NCBI RefSeq assembly: GCF_035918095.1
Contig: NZ_CP109137.1
Coordinates: forward strand, 3,598,001-3,662,000
Direction: 5' to 3'
Source of the DNA: Streptomyces sp. NBC_01750
GTDB taxonomy: Bacteria > Actinomycetota > Actinomycetes > Streptomycetales > Streptomycetaceae
Length of the DNA: 64,000 nucleotides
This document shows, piece by piece, positions 20,756 through 33,952 of the stretch (position 1 is the stretch's first letter; every line of letters begins with the position of its first letter). The position numbers and the translations under genes are program-made. Under the pieces are notes generated by a model. The model ran no database searches, was not told the origin of the DNA, and saw nothing but the letters and a program-made list of their open reading frames with translations.

Positions 20756-21622
20756 ATGCCCCCAGCCATCGCCGTCACCGGAGCAGGCGGACAGATCGGC
20801 GGGCGTCTCGCTCGGCGGCTCTCCGGGCGGGGGGTGGGCGCGCGGCTGCTGGGGCGGGATCCCGGACGGCTTCCGGACCTCGCCAGGTGCGTCAAGGCGC
20901 CGTCGGCGGCATACGGGGACGGGGAGGCCATGCGCCGGGCGATCGAAGGGGCCGACACGCTCTTCCTGGTGTCGGCACACGAGGCGGCCGACCGGGTGCG
21001 GGAGCACATCACCGCCGTGGACGCGGCCGTCGCGGCGGGAGTCGAGCGGATCGTGTACGTGTCGTTCATCGGCGCCGCGCCCAATGCCACCTTCACCTTC
21101 GCGCGCGATCACTGGCACACCGAGGAGTACATCCGGGGCACGGGGCTCGCGTACACCTTCCTCCGCGACAACCTCTATATGGCCGTGCTGCCCACCCTGG
21201 CCGCCGCGGACGGGGTCATCCGCGGGCCCGCCGGGGACGGGCGGGTCGGGGCGGTGGCGCACGAGGACATCGCGGATGTCGCCGCTGCCGTGCTACTCGG
21301 GGAAGGGCACGACGGGGCGACGTACGACGTCACCGGACCCGAGGCGCTCTCCCTCGACGAGGTCGCCGCGGAGCTGACCCGGGTCAGCGGGCGTCCGATC
21401 ACCTACGTGGCCGAGACGCGCGCGGAGGCGTACGCCTCACGGGCCGGGTACGGCGCGGAGGAGTGGGAGGTCGCCGGCTGGGTGTCCTCCTACGAAGCCA
21501 TCGCCAACGGCGAGACGGCCACCGTGTCCGACGTTGTCCCGCGGCTGACGGGCCGTCCGGCGCAGAGCTTCACCGAGTACCTGGCCGAGCATCCGGGCAG
21601 TTACCGGCACCTCTTGCCCTGA
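20756..21622 (+). CDS. NAD(P)-binding NmrA/QOR2-like oxidoreductase
   Basis: 288 aa from ATG 20756, with AGAGGA about eight bases upstream. A Rossmann fold starts [17 protein letters not shown] (GxxGxxG). [29 protein letters not shown] and the LRDNLYM segment match the NmrA/YtfG-type NAD(P)H:quinone oxidoreductases, an atypical SDR group without the catalytic Tyr-x-x-x-Lys. It probably reduces quinones or senses NADPH. The last 22 bp overlap the 3' end of hutI on the other strand. Confidence 0.85.
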
Positions 21623-22773
21623 CGCCAGACCTCCGAGACGAGCGGCACGCCCGGCCGGTAGGCCAGGTGGACATGGCTCGGGGCCTCGAGCAGGGCGAGG
21701 TCGGCGCGGGCGCCGGGGGTGACGCGGCCGATGTCGGTACGGCGCAGGGCCGCCGCGCCGCCGGCCGTCGCGGACCAGATCGCCTCGTCCGGAGTCATGC
21801 CCATGTCCCGTACGGCGAGCGCGATACAGAACGGAACGGAGGACGTGAAGGACGAGCCCGGGTTGCAGTCCGTGGACAGCGCGACGGTCACGCCCGCGTC
21901 CAGCAGGCGGCGGGCGTCGGGCCACTGTGCGCGGGTGGAGAACTCCGCGCCGGGGAGGAGCGTGGCGACGGTCGCGCTGTTGGCGAGCGCGTCGACGTCC
22001 GCGTCGGTGAGGTGCGTGCAGTGGTCGGCGGAAGCGGCGTCGAGCTCGACGGCGAGCTGCACGCCGGGGCCGTAGCTGAGCTGGTTGGCATGGACGCGAG
22101 GGTGCAGGCCCTTCGCCTTGCCGGCGGTGAGGATCGCGCGGGCCTGGTCGCCGTCGAAGGCGCCCTTCTCGCAGAAGACATCGACCCAACGGGCGTACGG
22201 AGCACAGGCGTCGAGCATCTCGCCGGTGACCAGGGCGACGTACGCCGCGGGGTCGTCGGCGTAGTCGGGCGGGACGATGTGCGCGCCGAGGTAGGTGACC
22301 TCGTCGGTGTGGAGCGCGGCGATGCGCAGGGCGCGAGCCTCGTCCTCGACGGTGAGCCCGTAGCCGGACTTGGTCTCGAAGGTTGTGGTGCCCTGGCGGA
22401 GGGCCTCGCGGAGGTAGTGCGTGAGGTTCGCTTCGAGAGCCTCGTCGCCGGCCGCGCGGGTCGCGGCGACGGTGGTGCGGATGCCGCCGGCGGAGTAGGC
22501 ACGGCCGGACATCCGGGCGTTGAACTCCTGAGTGCGGTCGCCGGCGAAGAGGAGGTGGGAGTGGGAGTCGACGAAGCCGGGGATGACGGCGCGCCCGGCG
22601 GCGTCGACGGCGTCATCGGCTGCCGGGGCGTCGGCGGTGGGCCCGACCCAGGCGACGTGGTCGCCGTCGACGACTACTGCGGCGTCCTGGAGGAGGCCGA
22701 TGGGGGTTCCGTCGCCGAGGGCGGGGTCGTTGGTGACGAGGCTGCCGATGTTGGTGATGACGGTGGTGGTCAT
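21601..22773 (-). CDS. hutI: imidazolonepropionase
   Basis: 390 aa from ATG 22773, with GGAGAGG five bases upstream. It catalyses the third step of histidine breakdown, hydrolysing imidazolone-5-propionate to N-formimidoyl-L-glutamate in the cytoplasm. Amidohydrolase landmarks are present: [13 protein letters not shown] with two metal His, [14 protein letters not shown], the [11 protein letters not shown]is, and the [11 protein letters not shown]sp. The length matches the family. It is the last gene of the leftward hut operon and is separated from hutF by a 95-bp gap containing a strong hairpin, which could lower its expression. Confidence 0.94.
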
Positions 22774-22801
22774 GGGTTCCTCTCCGAGGGTCATTGCCCT
22801 T

Positions 22802-22868: not shown

Positions 22869-24218
22869 TCATGCGCGCAGGGCCGCGATCGCTTCCGACA
22901 AGGCCGACGGGACGTCCGGGACCAGGGTGTGGGAGCCGTCGCGGACCACGTGGCGGCCCGCCACGACCGTGTGCCGCACGTCCGCGGCCGTCGCCGCGAA
23001 CACCGCCGTCTCCGCGGCCAGTCGCGGCAGCGGCCCCGCCGTGCGTACGGTGTCGAGGGCCACCGTCGTGAAGTCGGCGAGCGCGCCGGCCTCCAGGCGC
23101 CCCGCCTCGTCCCAGCCCAGCGCCGCGTGCCCGTCCTCCGTGGCGGCGCGCAGCAGCGACGCGGCCGTCCAGTGGCCGCGCGTACGGGTTCGCAGGCGTT
23201 CGTCCAGCTCCATCGCGCGGGCCTCTTCCAGCAGGTCGATCACCGCGTGGCTGTCGCTGCCGAGCGAGAGCGGGGAGCCCTCGCGCTGGAGGTCGGCCGC
23301 GGGCCCGATGCCGTCCGCCAAGTCCCGCTCGGTCGTCGGGCACATGCAGGTGCCCGTCCCGCTCCCGCCGACCAGCGCGATGTCCTCGTGCGTCAGATGC
23401 GTGTTGTGGACGCCCGTCGTCCGGGGGCCGAGCACACCGTGGTCGGCGAGCAGCCGGGCCGGTGTGCACCCGTGCGCGGCCAGACAGGCGTCGTTCTCCG
23501 CGGTCTGCTCGGAGAGGTGGACATGAAGGGGGGCGTTCCGTGCGGCTGCCCAGGAAGCGACGGTGGACAGCTGCTCCGCCGGAACCGCCCGTACGGAGTG
23601 GATCGCCGCCCCGATCCGTACCGTGTCACCGTCCTTCAGCAGCGAGGCGCGCTGCGCCCACGCCTCCGCCGTGCCGTCGGAGAAGCGAAGCTGATGCGCG
23701 GTCGGCGGCTCCCCGGTGTGCTTGTTCCCGATGGCGGACGACAGATACGCCGTGTCGAGCAGGGTGATCCGGATGCCCGCGTCCGCGGCGGCGGCGATCA
23801 GCGCCTCTCCCATGGCGTTGGGCTCGGCATACGGGGTGCCGCCCGGCGCGTGATGCACATAGTGGAACTCGCCGACCGCCGTGATCCCCGCCAGCGCCAT
23901 CTCCGCGTACACCGCCCGTGCCAGCGCGTGGTACGACTCCGGTGTCAGCCGTGAAGCGACCCCGTACATGAACTCGCGCCAGGTCCAGAAAGTCCCCGAC
24001 CCGACCTGGACGAGGCCGCGCAGGCCCCGGTGGAAAGCATGCGAGTGGGCGTTCGCGAGGCCGGGGATCGTGAAGCCCCGCAGCACGACCGCGCCCGGCG
24101 GCGGGGCGCCGACCTCGGTGCGTACGGCGGTGATCCGGCCGTCCGTCACGTCCAGGGCCACGCCCGGCTCGACATGTGTGCCGAGCCAGGCATGTTCCAG
24201 CCAGTACGTCATCTGCAC
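22869..24218 (-). CDS. hutF: formimidoylglutamate deiminase
   Basis: 449 aa, GTG 24218 with GGAGGG six bases upstream. It overlaps the preceding gene by 10 nt. HutF converts N-formimidoyl-L-glutamate to N-formyl-L-glutamate plus ammonia. Amidohydrolase motifs are visible: [15 protein letters not shown] (metal His pair), [21 protein letters not shown] and SLGSDSHA with the metal Asp. Presence of HutF shows that this organism uses the two-step formyl route, so an N-formylglutamate hydrolase is needed (see the neighbour at 24209). Confidence 0.93.
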
Positions 24219-25459
24219 GCGAGACCCTCCAGTACGTCGGCGAGCGCGATGACCCCGGCGACGCAGTCGTCCTCGGCCGCCGACTCGGCCGGGGAGTGCG
24301 AGACGCCTGTCGGGTTCCGTACGAACAGCATGGCTGTCGGGATGGCGCCGGACAGGATTCCCGCGTCGTGTCCCGCGCCCGTGCCGAGCACGGGGACGGA
24401 GCCGCCGAGGATCTTGTTCATCTCGTCGCGCAGCGCGTGCTCGAACTCGATCACCGGGGTGAAGGACTCGCGCACGACACGCAGGTCGACGCCGTCCCGC
24501 TCGGCCCGCTCCTTCGCCGCCCGCTCGATCGCGGAGACGACCGTGTCGAGCGTGGACTGGTCGGCGGCGCGCGAGTCCAGCCAGCCGCGCACCAGCGACG
24601 GGATCGCGTTGACGGCGTTCGGCTCGACGGAGATCTTGCCGAACGTGGCGACCGCGCCCGCGAGTTCGGCCTCGCGGCGGGCCGCGAGGACCGTCTCGGC
24701 GTATGTCAGCATCGGGTCGCGGCGGTCGACGAGCCGCGTCGTGCCCGCGTGGTTGGCCTCGCCGTGGAAGTCGAACCGCCAGCGGCCGTGCGGCCAGATC
24801 GCGGATGCGATGCCGACGCGGTCACCTGACAGGTCGAGCGCCCGGCCCTGCTCGACATGGAGCTCGACGAACGCGCCGATACGGGCGAGCCGTTCGGGGT
24901 CGGGACCGATGGTGGACGGGTCGTACCCGGCCTCCGCCATGGCCTGCGGGAGCGACACCCCGTCGCCGTCGCGCAGCCCGTACGCCGCTTCGCGCGTCAG
25001 CTGTCCGGAGGCGAGACGCGAGCCCACGCAGGCGAGACCGAAGCGGGCGCCCTCCTCGTCGCCGAAGTTGGTGATGGCGATCGGCTTCGTGAACCGGGCT
25101 CCTCTGGCGCGCAGTTCGTCGAGTGCGGCGAAGGAGGAGACCACGCCGAGCGGGCCGTCGAAGGCACCGCCGTCGGGGACCGAGTCCAGGTGGGAGCCGG
25201 TGACGACGGCACCCTCGGCGAGCGGGTCGCCGAGCCAGGCCCACTGGTTGCCGTTGCGGTCGAGCTCGTAGGTCAGGCCTCGGGAGTCGGCCTGTGCCTT
25301 GAACCAGGCGCGGCAGTCGGCGTCGGCGCCGGTCCAGGCGTAGCGGCGGTAGCCGCGGGTGTCCGCGTCGCGGCCGATGGGTTCGAGGTCCCGCCACATC
25401 TCGTGGAAGGAGGCCCCCGCCGGTCCGGCGGGGGTGTTGCCGGGAGCGTTCACGGTCAC
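24209..25459 (-). CDS. M20-family amidohydrolase (allantoate amidohydrolase/N-carbamoylase type)
   Basis: 416 aa, GTG overlapping the hutU stop (GTGA). The zinc-peptidase M20 hydantoinase/carbamoylase group is clear: [19 protein letters not shown] (metal His and Asp), [11 protein letters not shown] (Glu pair), ELHVEQG (His), [10 protein letters not shown] in the lid domain, and GAGHDAGIL near the end. It would be annotated as allantoate amidohydrolase, but no purine genes are nearby. It sits between hutU and hutF, where an N-formylglutamate amidohydrolase is required and no classical HutG is seen, so I infer it may deformylate N-formylglutamate. Confidence 0.88.
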
Positions 25460-27120
25460 GCCTGGTCGCCCTCGCGCATCGGGACACGCACACCGAGCTC
25501 GTCCGCGACCGACTCCGCGATGTCGTAGCCCGCGTCCACGTGGCGGATGACGCCCATGCCCGGGTCGTTCGTCAGTACGCGGCGGATCTTCTCGCCCGCG
25601 AGCTTCGTGCCGTCCGCCACCGAGACCTGGCCGGCGTGGATGGAGCGGCCCATGCCGACGCCACCGCCGTGGTGGATCGACACCCAGCTCGCGCCCGAGG
25701 CCACGTTGACCATGGCGTTGAGCAGCGGCCAGTCGGCGATGGCGTCCGACCCGTCCAGCATGGCCTCGGTCTCGCGGTAGGGGGATGCGACGGAGCCGCA
25801 GTCCAGGTGGTCGCGGCCGATCACCAGCGGGGCGGCCAGCTCACCGGAGGCCACCATGTCGTTGAAGCGCTCGCCCGCCTTGTCGCGCTCGCCGTAGCCG
25901 AGCCAGCAGATACGCGCCGGCAGACCCTGGAAGTGGACGCGCTCGCCGGCCATCTTGATCCAGCGGTGCAGCGACTCGTTCTCCGGGAAGAGCTCGAGCA
26001 TCGCCTTGTCGGTCTTGTGGATGTCCGAGGCCTCGCCGGACAGGGCCGCCCACCGGAACGGGCCCTTGCCCTCGCAGAACAGCGGCCGGATATACGCGGG
26101 CACAAAGCCGGGGAAGGCGAACGCCCGCTCGTAACCGGCCAGTTGGGCCTCGCCACGGATGGAGTTGCCGTAGTCGAAGACCTCGGCGCCGGCGTCCATG
26201 AAGCCGACCATCGCCTCCACATGGCGGGCCATGGACTCGCGGGCGCGCTGTGTGAAGTCGGCGGGCTTCTCGGCGGCGTACGAAGCCATGTCGTCGAAGT
26301 CGATGCCCAGGGGCAGGTAGGCCAGCGGGTCGTGGGCCGAGGTCTGGTCGGTCACGATGTCGATCGGCGCACCTTCGGCGAGCATGCGCGGCAGCAGTTC
26401 CGCGGCGTTGCCGAGCAGGCCGATGGAGAGCGGCTTGCGGGCGTCGCGGGCCTCGACGGCGAGCTGGAGCGCGTGCTCCAGCGAGTTCGCGCGCACGTCC
26501 AGGTAGCGGTGCTCGATACGGCGCTCGATCGCGCGCGGGTCGACGTCGATGCAGATCGCGACGCCGTCGTTCATCGTCACGGCGAGCGGCTGCGCGCCGC
26601 CCATGCCGCCCAGACCGGCGGTCAGCGTGATCGTCCCGGCGAGCGTGCCGCCGAACTTCTTGGCGGCGACCGCCGCGAACGTCTCGTACGTGCCCTGCAG
26701 GATGCCCTGCGTGCCGATGTAGATCCAGGAGCCGGCCGTCATCTGGCCGTACATGGTCAGACCCAGCTGCTCCAGCCGCCGGAACTCCTCCCAGTTCGCC
26801 CAGTCGCCGACCAGGTTGGAGTTGGCGATGAGCACCCGCGGCGCCCATTCGTGCGTCTGCATCACGCCGACCGGACGCCCGGACTGGACAAGCATCGTCT
26901 CGTCCTGCTTCAGCGTCTGCAGCGTGCGCACCATCGCGTCGAAGGAGCGCCAGTCGCGGGCCGCCTTGCCGGTGCCGCCGTAGACGACGAGCTTGTCGGG
27001 ATGCTCGGCGACCTCGGGGTCGAGGTTGTTCTGGAGCATGCGGAGGGCGGCTTCCTGCTGCCATCCCAGGGCGCTCAGTTCCGTACCGCGCGGTGCCCGT
27101 ACGGGGCGGGGTCCTGACAT
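25456..27120 (-). CDS. hutU: urocanate hydratase
   Basis: 554 aa, full length for the family. HutU adds water to urocanate to give imidazolonepropionate using tightly bound NAD+ as an electrophile. Recognisable blocks: [45 protein letters not shown], the NAD-binding [30 protein letters not shown], and [13 protein letters not shown] with the conserved Cys. It is the promoter-proximal gene of the operon hutU - M20 - hutF - hutI. Confidence 0.97.
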
Positions 27121-31068: not shown

Positions 31069-31905
31069 CTACTCCACGAACAGGCCCCGCGCCGCCGCTC
31101 TCGTGTCGAACTCCTCCAGACGCGCCTGCGCGTCCGGCAGGTCGTCGCACATCGCCTCCAGCAGCACCCGGCCCAGCAGCATCGGCGCGCACGCCGTGTC
31201 GAAGGCCAGCCCCGTGCCGACCGCCGCGGGGATCAGCAGGTCGCTGTGGCCCGCCACCGGTGCGAACGCCGAGTCCGCGACCGTCACCACCTTCAGACCC
31301 GCCGAGCGCGCGTACGCCAGCGCCTCCACGACCTCCTTCGGGTGGCGCGGCAGTGCGAAGCAGAGCAGCGCGCTCGCGCCGGCCGTGCGGGCCGCGTCGA
31401 TGCGGTCGGCGAGCAGCGTGCCGCCCTCGTCGAGGAGGCGCACATCCGGATGCACCTTGGCCGCGAAGTACGCGAAGCCGCGGGCCTGCGAGGACGCGGC
31501 GCGCAGGCCGAGCACCGGGAGCGGGCGGGACGCGGCGAGCAGCCGGCCCGCGCGCTCGACCGGGGCCGGGTCGGCGAGCAGTTCGGCCAGATGGGAGAGG
31601 TTCTCGATCTCGGCCTGCACCGCCTGCTGGTACTCGTTGTACCCGTCCTTCCCGCCCTCGCTCTCCGCGGGCGCGACCTCCCGCAGATACTTGCGCAGCG
31701 CCGGATAGCCGTCGAAGCCGAGCGCGACGGCGAATCGGGTGACGGACGGCTGGCTGACCCCCGCCAGTTCGGCGAGCTCCACGCTGGACAGGAACGGCGC
31801 GTCACCGGCCCGGCGCACCATGCTGTGTGCGATACGCCGCTGGGTGGGAGTGAGCCGGTGCCCCTCGAAGAGCTGCTGCAGCCGTGCGGCAGGGCTGTCG
31901 CTCAT
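31069..31905 (-). CDS. MurR/RpiR family transcriptional regulator
   Basis: 278 aa, ATG overlapping the lyase stop (ATGA). The N-terminal RpiR HTH (about 15-80) contains LTPTQRRIAHSMV, ELAGVSQPSVTRFAVALGFDGYPALRKYL. The SIS domain (about 125-260) includes PLPVLGLRAASSQARGFAYFAAKVHPDVRL and a SALLCFALPRHPKEVVEAL segment. SIS domains bind phosphosugars or related ligands. Being co-translated with an ammonia-lyase homologue, it probably controls that operon, and perhaps hutU through the shared TATTCA half-site. Confidence 0.9.
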   Translation of the reverse strand: MSDSPAARLQQLFEGHRLTPTQRRIAHSMVRRAGDAPFLSSVELAELAGVSQPSVTRFAVALGFDGYPALRKYLREVAPAESEGGKDGYNEYQQAVQAEIENLSHLAELLADPAPVERAGRLLAASRPLPVLGLRAASSQARGFAYFAAKVHPDVRLLDEGGTLLADRIDAARTAGASALLCFALPRHPKEVVEALAYARSAGLKVVTVADSAFAPVAGHSDLLIPAAVGTGLAFDTACAPMLLGRVLLEAMCDDLPDAQARLEEFDTRAAARGLFVE

Positions 31906-33419
31906 GCCATCCCCCTCATCAGGTCCGTCATCTCCGTCGCCAGGTCCGTGAACCGGTCGAGCAGCGCGGCCGCCGCCGTCACATCATCGGTCAGCGGCCG
32001 GTCGGCGAGCTCGTCGTCCAGTACGGCCTCGGCCAGCTCGAAGGCCCTGCCCACCGGAAGCTCCGGATCGGGCCGCAGCCCGCGCTGGCGCAACGCCCGT
32101 ACGGCGGCAACGAGTTCGCAGCCGACGACGAGCCGGTACGCGCCGCCCGCCCGCAGAGTCTGGCGCGCCGCCAACGAGGCGAAGCTGGCCTGTTCCTCGA
32201 CGCCCCGGGACAGTACCGCGTGGCCGAGCGAGGCGGGTGCGGAAAAGGCCCGCAGATCGCCGAGGGCCGCGCCGGCGGCGTACTCGAGGATCATCACGCC
32301 GGAGCTCGCAGCCTCCGCGTCCGCGAGGAAGGGCCGCAGCCGGGTGAAGGCGGGCTCGTTCAGGGCGGAGAGCCGGGAGGTGGACAGTCGCGCGGTCTGA
32401 CTGATCGCGAGCCTGAAGTGGTCCAGGTCCAGGGCGAGTTGGGCCATGTAGAAGCCGCCGTGGTGATACGCGGCCATGTCGGCGGCGCGGATCAGCGGGT
32501 TCTCGGCGGCCGCGTTGATCTCGACGGCGAGGGTCCGCTCCAGCGCGTCCGCCGCGTCCTGCGCCGGCCCGTGGATCTGCGGCAGACAGCGGAATCCGTA
32601 CGGATCCTGTATCCGTCCGAGCGGCGGCGTGGGCCGCTCGGGCGCGCCGAGCAGCTGCCGCATCCTGGCGGCGACGGCGTACGTGCCGGGGTGCGGCCGG
32701 GCCGCGTGCACGGGTTCCGCGTACGCCTCGTACGAGCCGTCGACCGCGAGCAGCGAGAGCGCGGCGACCAGCTCGGTGGCCGAGACGAGTGCGCGCAGCT
32801 CGTCCAGGGCGAGCGCGGCCTGCCCGAGGGTGAGGGCGTTGGAGCTGATCAGGGCCAGGGCGTCGTTGTTGTCGAGGGCCTGCGCCTCGGGCGGCGGGCC
32901 GCCCTCCCAGGGATGTTCACCGGCCAGCGCGAGGCCCATCTGGGCCAGGGCCGCGATATCGCCGGTGCCGACCGAGCCGAACTCGTTGACGACGGGGTAC
33001 GCGCCGCTCTCCAGCGCCTCGCAGAGCGCGGTGACGACGCCGGGCCGCAGCCCGGCACCGCCCGCGAGCAACTGGTTGGCCCGTACGGCGAGCATGGCGC
33101 GGACCTGTCGGGCCGGCAGCGGATCGCCGATCGCGCCGGCGTGCGAGCGCAGCAGCCGCAGCCCGTGATCGGCGGCGGCCCCGGTCGGCACGTCCTCGTT
33201 CCGGTTGGCACCGACGCCGGTGGAGCGCCCGTAGACCCGGCCCGAAGCGGCGAGCTCCCGCGCCGCGTCCCAGGAGACCTCGACGCGCTTGATCGCCTCG
33301 GATCCGGGTACGGGACGGGCCGCGCCATCGGCCAGTCGGACGATGTCCGCGACCGGGAGGCTCTGTCCGTCGAGGACCACGATGCCGGTGGGCGAGTCCA
33401 CGATGTGGGACGACATCAC
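31902..33419 (-). CDS. HAL/PAL-family aromatic amino acid ammonia-lyase homologue with atypical MIO loop
   Basis: 505 aa from GTG 33419, with AGGAGGGG seven bases upstream (the ATG at 33449 lies before that site). The family is clear: VYGRSTGVG, SHAGAIGDPLP, QDPYGFRCLPQIHG, EINAAAENPL, SSGVMILEYAAGAAL. In true histidine ammonia-lyases an Ala/Cys-Ser-Gly triad inside GSxGxSGDLAPL cyclises to the MIO electrophile. Here the loop reads GSVGTGDIAAL, one residue shorter, with Gly151-Thr152-Gly153-Asp154 where the triad should be. It may be annotated hutH, but normal MIO formation is doubtful. It is co-transcribed with an RpiR regulator. Confidence 0.88.
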   Translation of the reverse strand: MMSSHIVDSPTGIVVLDGQSLPVADIVRLADGAARPVPGSEAIKRVEVSWDAARELAASGRVYGRSTGVGANRNEDVPTGAAADHGLRLLRSHAGAIGDPLPARQVRAMLAVRANQLLAGGAGLRPGVVTALCEALESGAYPVVNEFGSVGTGDIAALAQMGLALAGEHPWEGGPPPEAQALDNNDALALISSNALTLGQAALALDELRALVSATELVAALSLLAVDGSYEAYAEPVHAARPHPGTYAVAARMRQLLGAPERPTPPLGRIQDPYGFRCLPQIHGPAQDAADALERTLAVEINAAAENPLIRAADMAAYHHGGFYMAQLALDLDHFRLAISQTARLSTSRLSALNEPAFTRLRPFLADAEAASSGVMILEYAAGAALGDLRAFSAPASLGHAVLSRGVEEQASFASLAARQTLRAGGAYRLVVGCELVAAVRALRQRGLRPDPELPVGRAFELAEAVLDDELADRPLTDDVTAAAALLDRFTDLATEMTDLMRGMA

Positions 33420-33557: not shown

Positions 33558-33952
33558 ATGATCAAATTCGAAGCAGTGCTGCGTCTCTCCGGGGGGCACC
33601 CCCGGACCCCCGGAGCGCTTCCCAACGGCACCACGGCAGCCGGTATCACCGTCCTGGCGGTTCCTCCGGGTGCGGTAAGACCACCACGCTCCGCATGATC
33701 AACCGGATGGTCGATCCGACCTCGGGCACGATCCGCGCGGGCGGCAAGGACGTCCTGACGCAGGACGCCGCGGAGCTGCGCCGCTCCATCGGATACGTCA
33801 TCCAGCAGTCCGGCCTCTTCCCGCACCGCACGATCCTCGACAACATCGCGACCGTGCCGCTGCTGCTGGGCTGGGGCCGGCGCAAGGCGCGGGCGCGGGC
33901 GGCGGAGCTGCTCGAGAAGGTCGGCCTGCCGGCCGGCCTCACCGGGAAGTAA
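33558..33952 (+). pseudogene. decayed glycine betaine/proline-type ABC transporter ATPase (OpuCA-like)
   Basis: ATG 33558 begins MIKFEAV, as OpuCA-type ATPases do, but the next stretch is disrupted by a hairpin-like GC insertion (about 33578-33610) and the rest of the N-domain is shortened. A one-base deletion near 33657 shifts the frame just before the Walker A (GSSGCGKTTTLRMINRMVD). The remaining frame continues with IGYVIQQSGLFPHRTILDNI (Q-loop) and stops at 33952, before the LSGGQ signature and Walker B. No permease or binding protein follows. At least three lesions make a functional product impossible. Confidence 0.85.

What the first reader, a model, noticed from the sequence alone, without database searches (positions are those of the whole stretch)
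31902..33419. Ammonia-lyase-family protein without the canonical MIO triad
The protein keeps most of the HAL/PAL fold signatures (VYGRSTGVG, QDPYGFRCLPQIHG, EINAAAENPL), but the loop that should read GSxG-A/C-S-G-DLAPL is GSVGTGDIAAL, one residue short. The MIO electrophile forms from Ala/Cys-Ser-Gly (known for this family). Here Gly151-Thr152-Gly153 would have to cyclise, or the protein works without MIO. It is translationally coupled to an RpiR regulator. It may be a new enzyme class, a binding protein, or a decoy, and is likely mislabelled hutH in databases.
Basis: partly seen in the sequence, partly recalled or inferred. Interest (0 to 1): 0.8.

Follow-up and report, generated by a model that had tools for sequence, protein, structure and literature searches.

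The report
Cofactor-less lyase probably degrading histidine betaine
A Streptomyces gene that databases call a histidine or aromatic amino-acid ammonia-lyase belongs to a family that has lost the enzyme's built-in cofactor, and its gene neighbours suggest that it splits trimethylamine off a histidine-derived betaine, opening a second entrance to the histidine breakdown pathway.

Summary
The window protein is a full HAL/PAL-fold protein (PF00221, 366 bits) whose MIO loop reads GSVGTGD, one residue short. The gap is family-wide: in a joint alignment the MIO Ala/Cys column is empty in 116 of 116 members, while six canonical HutH read GCSGD. It is not unprecedented: ergothionase (PDB 6S7J), which eliminates trimethylamine without MIO, has the same gap (120 of 120 family members). 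But this family lacks ergothionase's signature residues and forms its own clade. Neighbours point to the substrate: genes of a betaine-type (OpuC/EgtU-like) ABC importer lie within 8 kb in 30 of 38 surveyed loci, against 0 of 20 canonical hutH loci. In two distant actinobacteria importer, lyase and urocanate hydratase lie in one co-directional run; seven scanned hydratases are true HutU, not thiourocanate hydratases. Best explanation: a MIO-independent trimethylamine-lyase acting on histidine betaine (hercynine), giving urocanate for the Hut pathway. In the window the importer is reduced to an ATPase remnant, but the lyase is under purifying selection. No activity was measured; reaction and substrate are inferred.

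The parts
31902..33416 (-). MIO-less lyase, the finding itself (504 aa)
   Evidence: PF00221 366 bits; ORF; dN/dS 0.09 to L080 and 0.17-0.22 to three others
32958..32978 (-). loop Gly147-Asp153 (GSVGTGD) in place of the MIO loop
   Evidence: gap at the MIO Ala/Cys column in 116 of 116 family members
31069..31905 (-). RpiR-type regulator, overlaps the lyase stop by ATGA
   Evidence: PF01418 HTH_6, 41 bits; adjacency
33659..33949 (+). remnant of the ATPase of the divergent OpuC-type ABC importer; no permease or binding-protein match left
   Evidence: 87% identity over 97 residues to the L040 ATPase
25456..27120 (-). hutU, urocanate hydratase, 4.8 kb from the lyase
   Evidence: 908 bits on hutU (cut-off 375); 646 on thiourocanate hydratase (cut-off 930)
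24209..25459 (-). M20 amidase of the hut run
   Evidence: NF006770, 658 bits, cut-off 372
22869..24218 (-). hutF, formimidoylglutamate deiminase
   Evidence: TIGR02022 539 bits, cut-off 413
21601..22794 (-). hutI, imidazolonepropionase
   Evidence: TIGR01224 369 bits, cut-off 298

Best explanation
The protein is a MIO-independent lyase of the HAL fold. A quaternary ammonium group can leave unaided, so the electrophilic MIO, which in HAL turns the poor leaving group ammonia into a good one, is not needed. Most likely it removes the beta-proton (with Tyr62, HAL Tyr53) and expels trimethylamine from histidine betaine (hercynine), giving urocanate, which HutU, HutI, HutF and the M20 amidase take to glutamate. 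The betaine enters through the divergently transcribed OpuC/EgtU-type ABC importer where that is intact. In the window only a piece of the importer's ATPase is left, so the enzyme may act on betaine imported otherwise or made by the cell (the genome has EgtD, the hercynine-forming enzyme of ergothioneine synthesis). Shown: loop, kept and lost residues, clade, neighbours, purifying selection. Inferred: absence of MIO in the protein, the reaction, the substrate. My estimates: MIO-free 0.93; elimination of a quaternary amine 0.75; hercynine in particular 0.55. The confidence below is for the whole statement.
For: Loop gap 116 of 116, shared with ergothionase 120 of 120; catalytic Tyr, His, Gln, Arg, Glu kept. 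Nearest MIO-less solved protein is ergothionase, aligned gap-free through the loop. Importer genes within 8 kb in 30 of 38 loci (26 with binding protein, permease and ATPase), 15 of 21 outside Streptomyces, 67 of 80 named Streptomyces, 0 of 20 canonical hutH loci; ATPase adjacent and divergent in 75 of 115. Binding protein is OpuAC, nearest solved chains ProX and EgtUC. Hut genes within 8 kb in 13 of 38, 59 of 80 named Streptomyces, 3 of 20 controls; one co-directional run with importer and HutU in L198 and L212. Both the MIO-less lyase and a canonical HutH lie in one locus in L056, L057, L066, L067 and L212, so it is an addition to HutH, not a substitute. Seven scanned HutU are true urocanases. 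At ergothionase Lys384 the family has Tyr (114 of 116) like the six HutH. Test after the hypothesis was noted: of three loci found later (L211-L213), two have the importer, two Hut genes, three at least one. EgtD in the genome.
Against: No activity measured. Eight of 38 loci have no importer gene within 8 kb, and four of these (L061, L069, L074, L075) carry LacI, amidohydrolase and cysteine dioxygenase genes instead, so substrates may differ between subfamilies. In the window itself the importer is a remnant. Outside Streptomyces only 6 of 21 loci have a Hut gene within 8 kb, and in Streptomyces the linkage may reflect one ancestral insertion site. OpuC-type importers carry many betaines, so the importer alone does not name hercynine. 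Identity to the genome's own HutH (32%) is higher than to ergothionase (25-26%). The shared clade with ergothionase rests on long branches (AU p 0.067 for the alternative with HAL/HutH).
Confidence: 0.55

Rival explanations
1. It is an actinobacterial ergothionase: it eliminates trimethylamine from ergothioneine, giving thiourocanate.
For: Same loop gap and SSN motif; grouped with ergothionase at SH-aLRT 98; importer binding protein close to the ergothioneine-binding EgtUC.
Against: Lys384, Glu143 and Arg58 of T. denticola ergothionase (115, 118, 118 of 120) are Tyr, Thr, Thr here (114, 115, 116 of 116); separate clade; the seven scanned hydratases pass the hutU cut-off and miss the thiourocanate hydratase cut-off.
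Confidence: 0.17
2. It eliminates a quaternary or other good leaving group from another substrate (another aromatic betaine, or an imidazole compound without three methyls).
For: Importers of this type are not specific for one betaine (recalled); the Agrobacterium L200 lyase pairs the same importer type with CoA-transferase, enoyl-CoA hydratase and hydroxyacyl-CoA dehydrogenase genes, that is, another product; four loci have a different neighbourhood.
Against: HutU within the same run; HAL-like His83 and Glu414 kept.
Confidence: 0.18
3. It still forms a MIO-like group from Gly-Thr-Gly, or works as an ordinary histidine ammonia-lyase.
For: HAL catalytic residues kept; Hut genes nearby.
Against: One residue missing in 116 of 116; Ile at the loop position in L211; 278 bits on hutH, cut-off 539; the genome and five of the neighbour loci have a canonical HutH too.
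Confidence: 0.05
4. It is not an enzyme but a ligand sensor or binding protein working with RpiR.
For: Coupled to rpiR; a Streptomyces subfamily has a binding-protein gene directly upstream on the same strand (6 of 115), in L048 beside conservon-type signalling genes.
Against: Catalytic residues kept in 115-116 of 116; an RpiR gene is not the next downstream gene on the same strand in 33 of 115 loci.
Confidence: 0.05

Closest known systems
Ergothionase (ergothioneine trimethylamine-lyase), T. denticola, PDB 6S7J/6S7Q
   Same: HAL fold, no MIO triad, same one-residue gap, Ser-Ser/Cys-Asn in place of HAL Asn195-Gly-Thr, same kept Tyr, His, Gln, Arg, Glu
   Different: Lys384, Glu143, Arg58 replaced; separate clade; neighbours are true hutU genes and an OpuC-type importer; about 25% identity
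Histidine ammonia-lyase HutH (TIGR01225)
   Same: fold, five catalytic residues, link to Hut genes
   Different: no Ala/Cys-Ser-Gly triad, Asn195 lost, 278 bits against a cut-off of 539; HutH present as well
OpuC/EgtU-type betaine importers (importer part)
   Same: OpuAC binding protein, ProV-like ATPase, two permeases; nearest solved binding proteins ProX and EgtUC
   Different: divergent from a lyase gene; ligand untested; only an ATPase remnant in the window
Agrobacterium plasmid lyase L200
   Same: MIO triad lost, in a co-directional run with an OpuC-type importer
   Different: another loop deletion, placed with HutH/HAL, followed by CoA-pathway genes

Membership tests
PF00221 aromatic amino acid lyase fold | profile over its curated cut-off and matching fold | tested here: met
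Histidine ammonia-lyase (HutH) | Ala/Cys-Ser-Gly triad forming MIO | tested here: not met
   gap and Thr-Gly, 116 of 116 without the triad
Histidine ammonia-lyase (HutH) | TIGR01225 hutH cut-off | tested here: not met
   278 bits, cut-off 539
Histidine ammonia-lyase (HutH) | catalytic Tyr53, His83, Gln277, Arg283, Glu414 | tested here: met
   115 or 116 of 116; roles recalled
Ergothionase | MIO-less loop with one-residue gap | tested here: met
   116 of 116 here, 120 of 120 there
Ergothionase | conserved Lys384, Glu143, Arg58 | tested here: not met
   Tyr, Thr, Thr in 114, 115, 116 of 116; that Lys384 is catalytic is recalled
Ergothionase | lies inside the ergothionase clade | tested here: not met
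   two clades, each SH-aLRT 100; that they are sisters is inconclusive
Ergothionase | eliminates trimethylamine from ergothioneine | not testable with these tools
   needs an assay
Hercynine trimethylamine-lyase (proposed) | expels trimethylamine from hercynine, giving urocanate | not testable with these tools
   inferred from loop, residues and neighbours

The most novel reading that the evidence does not exclude
A widespread, undescribed actinobacterial enzyme, hercynine trimethylamine-lyase, with its own betaine importer and regulator, opens a second entrance to the Hut pathway. Loss of MIO in this fold goes with a change of leaving group from ammonia to a quaternary amine and has happened at least twice (this clade with ergothionase, and the Agrobacterium L200 type), so a missing MIO triad plus an OpuC-type importer would predict betaine lyases.
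Probability: 0.5. Interest if true: 0.72.

Novelty: new variant of a known kind. Interest (0 to 1): 0.62.

Why it matters
Hercynine and ergothioneine are made by fungi and actinobacteria (passages of PMC9103826). Five full-text searches naming hercynine, thiourocanate or histidine betaine listed no paper that, by title or start of abstract, describes bacterial breakdown of hercynine; subscription papers are mostly not held. If true, many proteins now named histidine or aromatic amino acid ammonia-lyase get a definite, cheap-to-test activity, and the missing MIO triad becomes a rule for finding lyases of quaternary amines and biological sources of trimethylamine.

Tried and rejected
Gly-Thr-Gly cyclisation, plain HutH, ergothionase and a sensor or decoy role: see the rivals. 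The link with LacI, Amidohydro_2 and cysteine dioxygenase genes (11 of 38): I first thought of a step that desulfurises ergothioneine to hercynine, but the dioxygenase matches solved cysteine dioxygenases at 254 bits and the amidohydrolase has no solved relative by sequence, so I leave it unexplained. A sigma-70-type promoter and terminator scan found nothing. No ergothionase model showed up in NCBIfam: T. denticola ergothionase itself hits eight HAL/PAL-type models, each below its cut-off. Whether MIO was lost once for this clade and ergothionase is open: AU p 0.067 for this clade with HAL/HutH, 0.011 for ergothionase with HAL/HutH, 0.291 for this clade plus ergothionase without L188. The fold comparison does not choose between HAL and ergothionase. 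The second protein search mostly repeated the first.

Limits of the counts: genes in relatives were called by my own codon-usage script, which missed the lyase in L046, L058, L072 and L121; the tblastn counts include these. Six canonical HutH were taken out of the 122-member cluster before counting. L059 (the own HutH) and L076 (loop GCSGD) were left out of the 38. Importer 'within 8 kb' counts any of binding protein, permease, ATPase; 26 of the 30 have all three kinds. Two control loci (L176, L177) are short contigs. The 120 ergothionase-family proteins are the listed 120 of 1137 hits and the 163 homologues are the listed hits of two searches, so both are the nearest ones. The 80 named Streptomyces loci are the best 80 of 583, not a sample.

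Full report
What is there. The minus-strand ORF 31902-33416 encodes a 504-aa PF00221 protein (366 bits) with loop GSVGTGD; rpiR overlaps its stop by ATGA. The host is a Streptomyces, judged by the names of its nearest homologues; its genome has one other PF00221 gene, a canonical HutH. 13 of 24 same-genus relatives have a close member (best E below 1e-80); the other 11 of 24 have only HutH-level matches. In an even draw from the class, 32 of 394 genomes have a match at E 1e-60 or better; one of these (G301, locus L076) proved to be canonical HutH.

The loop. Among listed homologues, 163 of 163 read G[SA]VGTGD[IL]. In an alignment of 116 family members, 120 ergothionase-family proteins, six canonical HutH and P. 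putida HAL, the column of the MIO Ala/Cys is empty in 116 of 116 and 120 of 120. The HAL Ser column is Thr in 115 of 116 and Glu in 118 of 120 ergothionase-family proteins. HAL Asn195-Gly-Thr is Ser (115), Ser (115), Asn (108) of 116 here, and Ser (112), Ser (104), Asn (120) of 120 in the ergothionase set. Tyr53, Gln277, Arg283 and Glu414 of HAL are kept in 116 of 116, His83 and Phe329 in 115 of 116. At ergothionase Lys384 the family has Tyr (114 of 116), as do the six HutH; at Arg58 it has Thr (116 of 116) (numbering). A relative from outside the class, L211, has Ile in the loop (GSIGIGD), so no hydroxyl is needed there.

Neighbours: importer. In 38 loci around family members from surveyed genomes, a gene of an ABC importer lies within 8 kb in 30 (binding protein, permease and ATPase in 26); outside Streptomyces in 15 of 21. 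Among 80 named Streptomyces loci it is 67. Around 20 canonical hutH genes from the same surveyed genomes it is 0. The ATPase gene is the adjacent, divergent gene in 75 of 115 loci. The binding protein is OpuAC (182 bits), nearest in the PDB to ProX and EgtUC. The eight of 38 without an importer gene within 8 kb are L046, L050, L055, L061, L063, L069, L074 and L075. The own genome has six OpuAC genes in 8.98 Mb, so one within 8 kb of a given gene would be expected by chance in about 1% of cases (my arithmetic).

Neighbours: Hut genes. They lie within 8 kb in 13 of 38 loci, 6 of 21 outside Streptomyces, 59 of 80 named Streptomyces and 3 of 20 control loci; in Streptomyces this may be one shared insertion site. 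Clearest are L198 (Arthrobacter plasmid: ATPase, permease, permease, binding protein, HutU, lyase on one strand) and L212 (HutH, ATPase, permease, permease, binding protein, lyase, M20 amidase, HutU, HutF, HutI on one strand). L211, L212 and L213 came from a phylum-level search made after the hypothesis was noted: two of three have the importer, two of three Hut genes, three of three at least one, and three of three a MIO-less loop. HutU of the window, L066, L198, L212, L049, L213 and L056 score 875-933 bits on hutU (cut-off 375), 626-681 on thiourocanate hydratase (cut-off 930) and 669-718 on S-methyl-thiourocanate hydratase (cut-off 880). So the product is more likely urocanate than thiourocanate.

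The window itself. Of the importer, 97 aligned residues of the ATPase remain, at 33659-33949; no permease or binding-protein match is found there. The near relative L080 keeps a piece of the binding protein instead. Still, lyase dN/dS (simple Nei-Gojobori) is 0.09 to L080, which also lacks an intact importer, and 0.17 to 0.22 to three others, so the gene is under purifying selection. The genome has EgtD (376 bits, cut-off 291), so hercynine can probably be made inside the cell.

Mechanism. In HAL the MIO adds to the substrate and turns ammonia into a good leaving group; this and the roles of Tyr53, His83 and Glu414 are recalled knowledge. A trimethylammonium group needs no such help. PMC13405746 (passages seen) states that ergothionase lacks MIO and breaks ergothioneine into trimethylamine and thiourocanic acid; Maurer et al. 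2019 was seen only in its reference list, and that Lys384 is catalytic there is recalled. I infer the same chemistry here with an imidazole betaine as substrate. Hercynine fits the importer, HutU, the HAL-like imidazole site and the missing ergothionase lysine, but other betaines are not excluded.

What is known. Ten full-text searches listed no paper whose title or start of abstract describes this family; I read passages of three papers (PMC13405746, PMC9002059, PMC9103826) and none in full.

Verdict. It is a new variant of a known kind: a MIO-free lyase like ergothionase, with a different active-site signature and pathway context.

Noticed in passing
L200 3539-11466 (Agrobacterium tumefaciens plasmid NZ_CP123840.1): A second, probably independent MIO-less lyase (loop GSVGY...LIATSH) in a run with an OpuC-type importer and with CoA-transferase, hydroxyacyl-CoA dehydrogenase and enoyl-CoA hydratase genes: a candidate aromatic-betaine pathway.
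   Followed up: partly
L188 (unnamed Streptomyces-genus genome G014, contig 297): A lyase with loop GSIG-ASDL, another MIO-less type, joined to the ergothionase side of the tree (support 85) on a long branch.
   Followed up: no
L049, L053, L056, L057, L058, L061, L069, L070, L074, L075, L040: LacI regulator, Amidohydro_2 and cysteine dioxygenase genes lie within 8 kb of the lyase in 11 of 38 loci, 10 of them outside Streptomyces; role unexplained.
   Followed up: partly
L048 3515-10605: In a Streptomyces subfamily the lyase has a binding-protein gene directly upstream on the same strand; in L048 roadblock, DUF742 and ATP-binding genes of conservon type lie beside them.
   Followed up: no
L085 6406-9497 and other named Streptomyces loci: An NCS1-type permease gene lies within 8 kb of the lyase in 20 of 80 named Streptomyces loci and is the adjacent divergent gene in 6 of 115.
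   Followed up: no
L199 8917-10605 (Paracoccus saliphilus plasmid): An ergothionase-like lyase (loop GSVGE-ADI) sits in a full hut gene set that also holds hutH, another case of a second lyase beside the Hut pathway.
   Followed up: no
window 24209-25459: An M20 hydrolase matched by NCBI's 'allantoate amidohydrolase' model lies between hutU and hutF; by position it may do the last Hut step, so the name may be wrong (inference).
   Followed up: no
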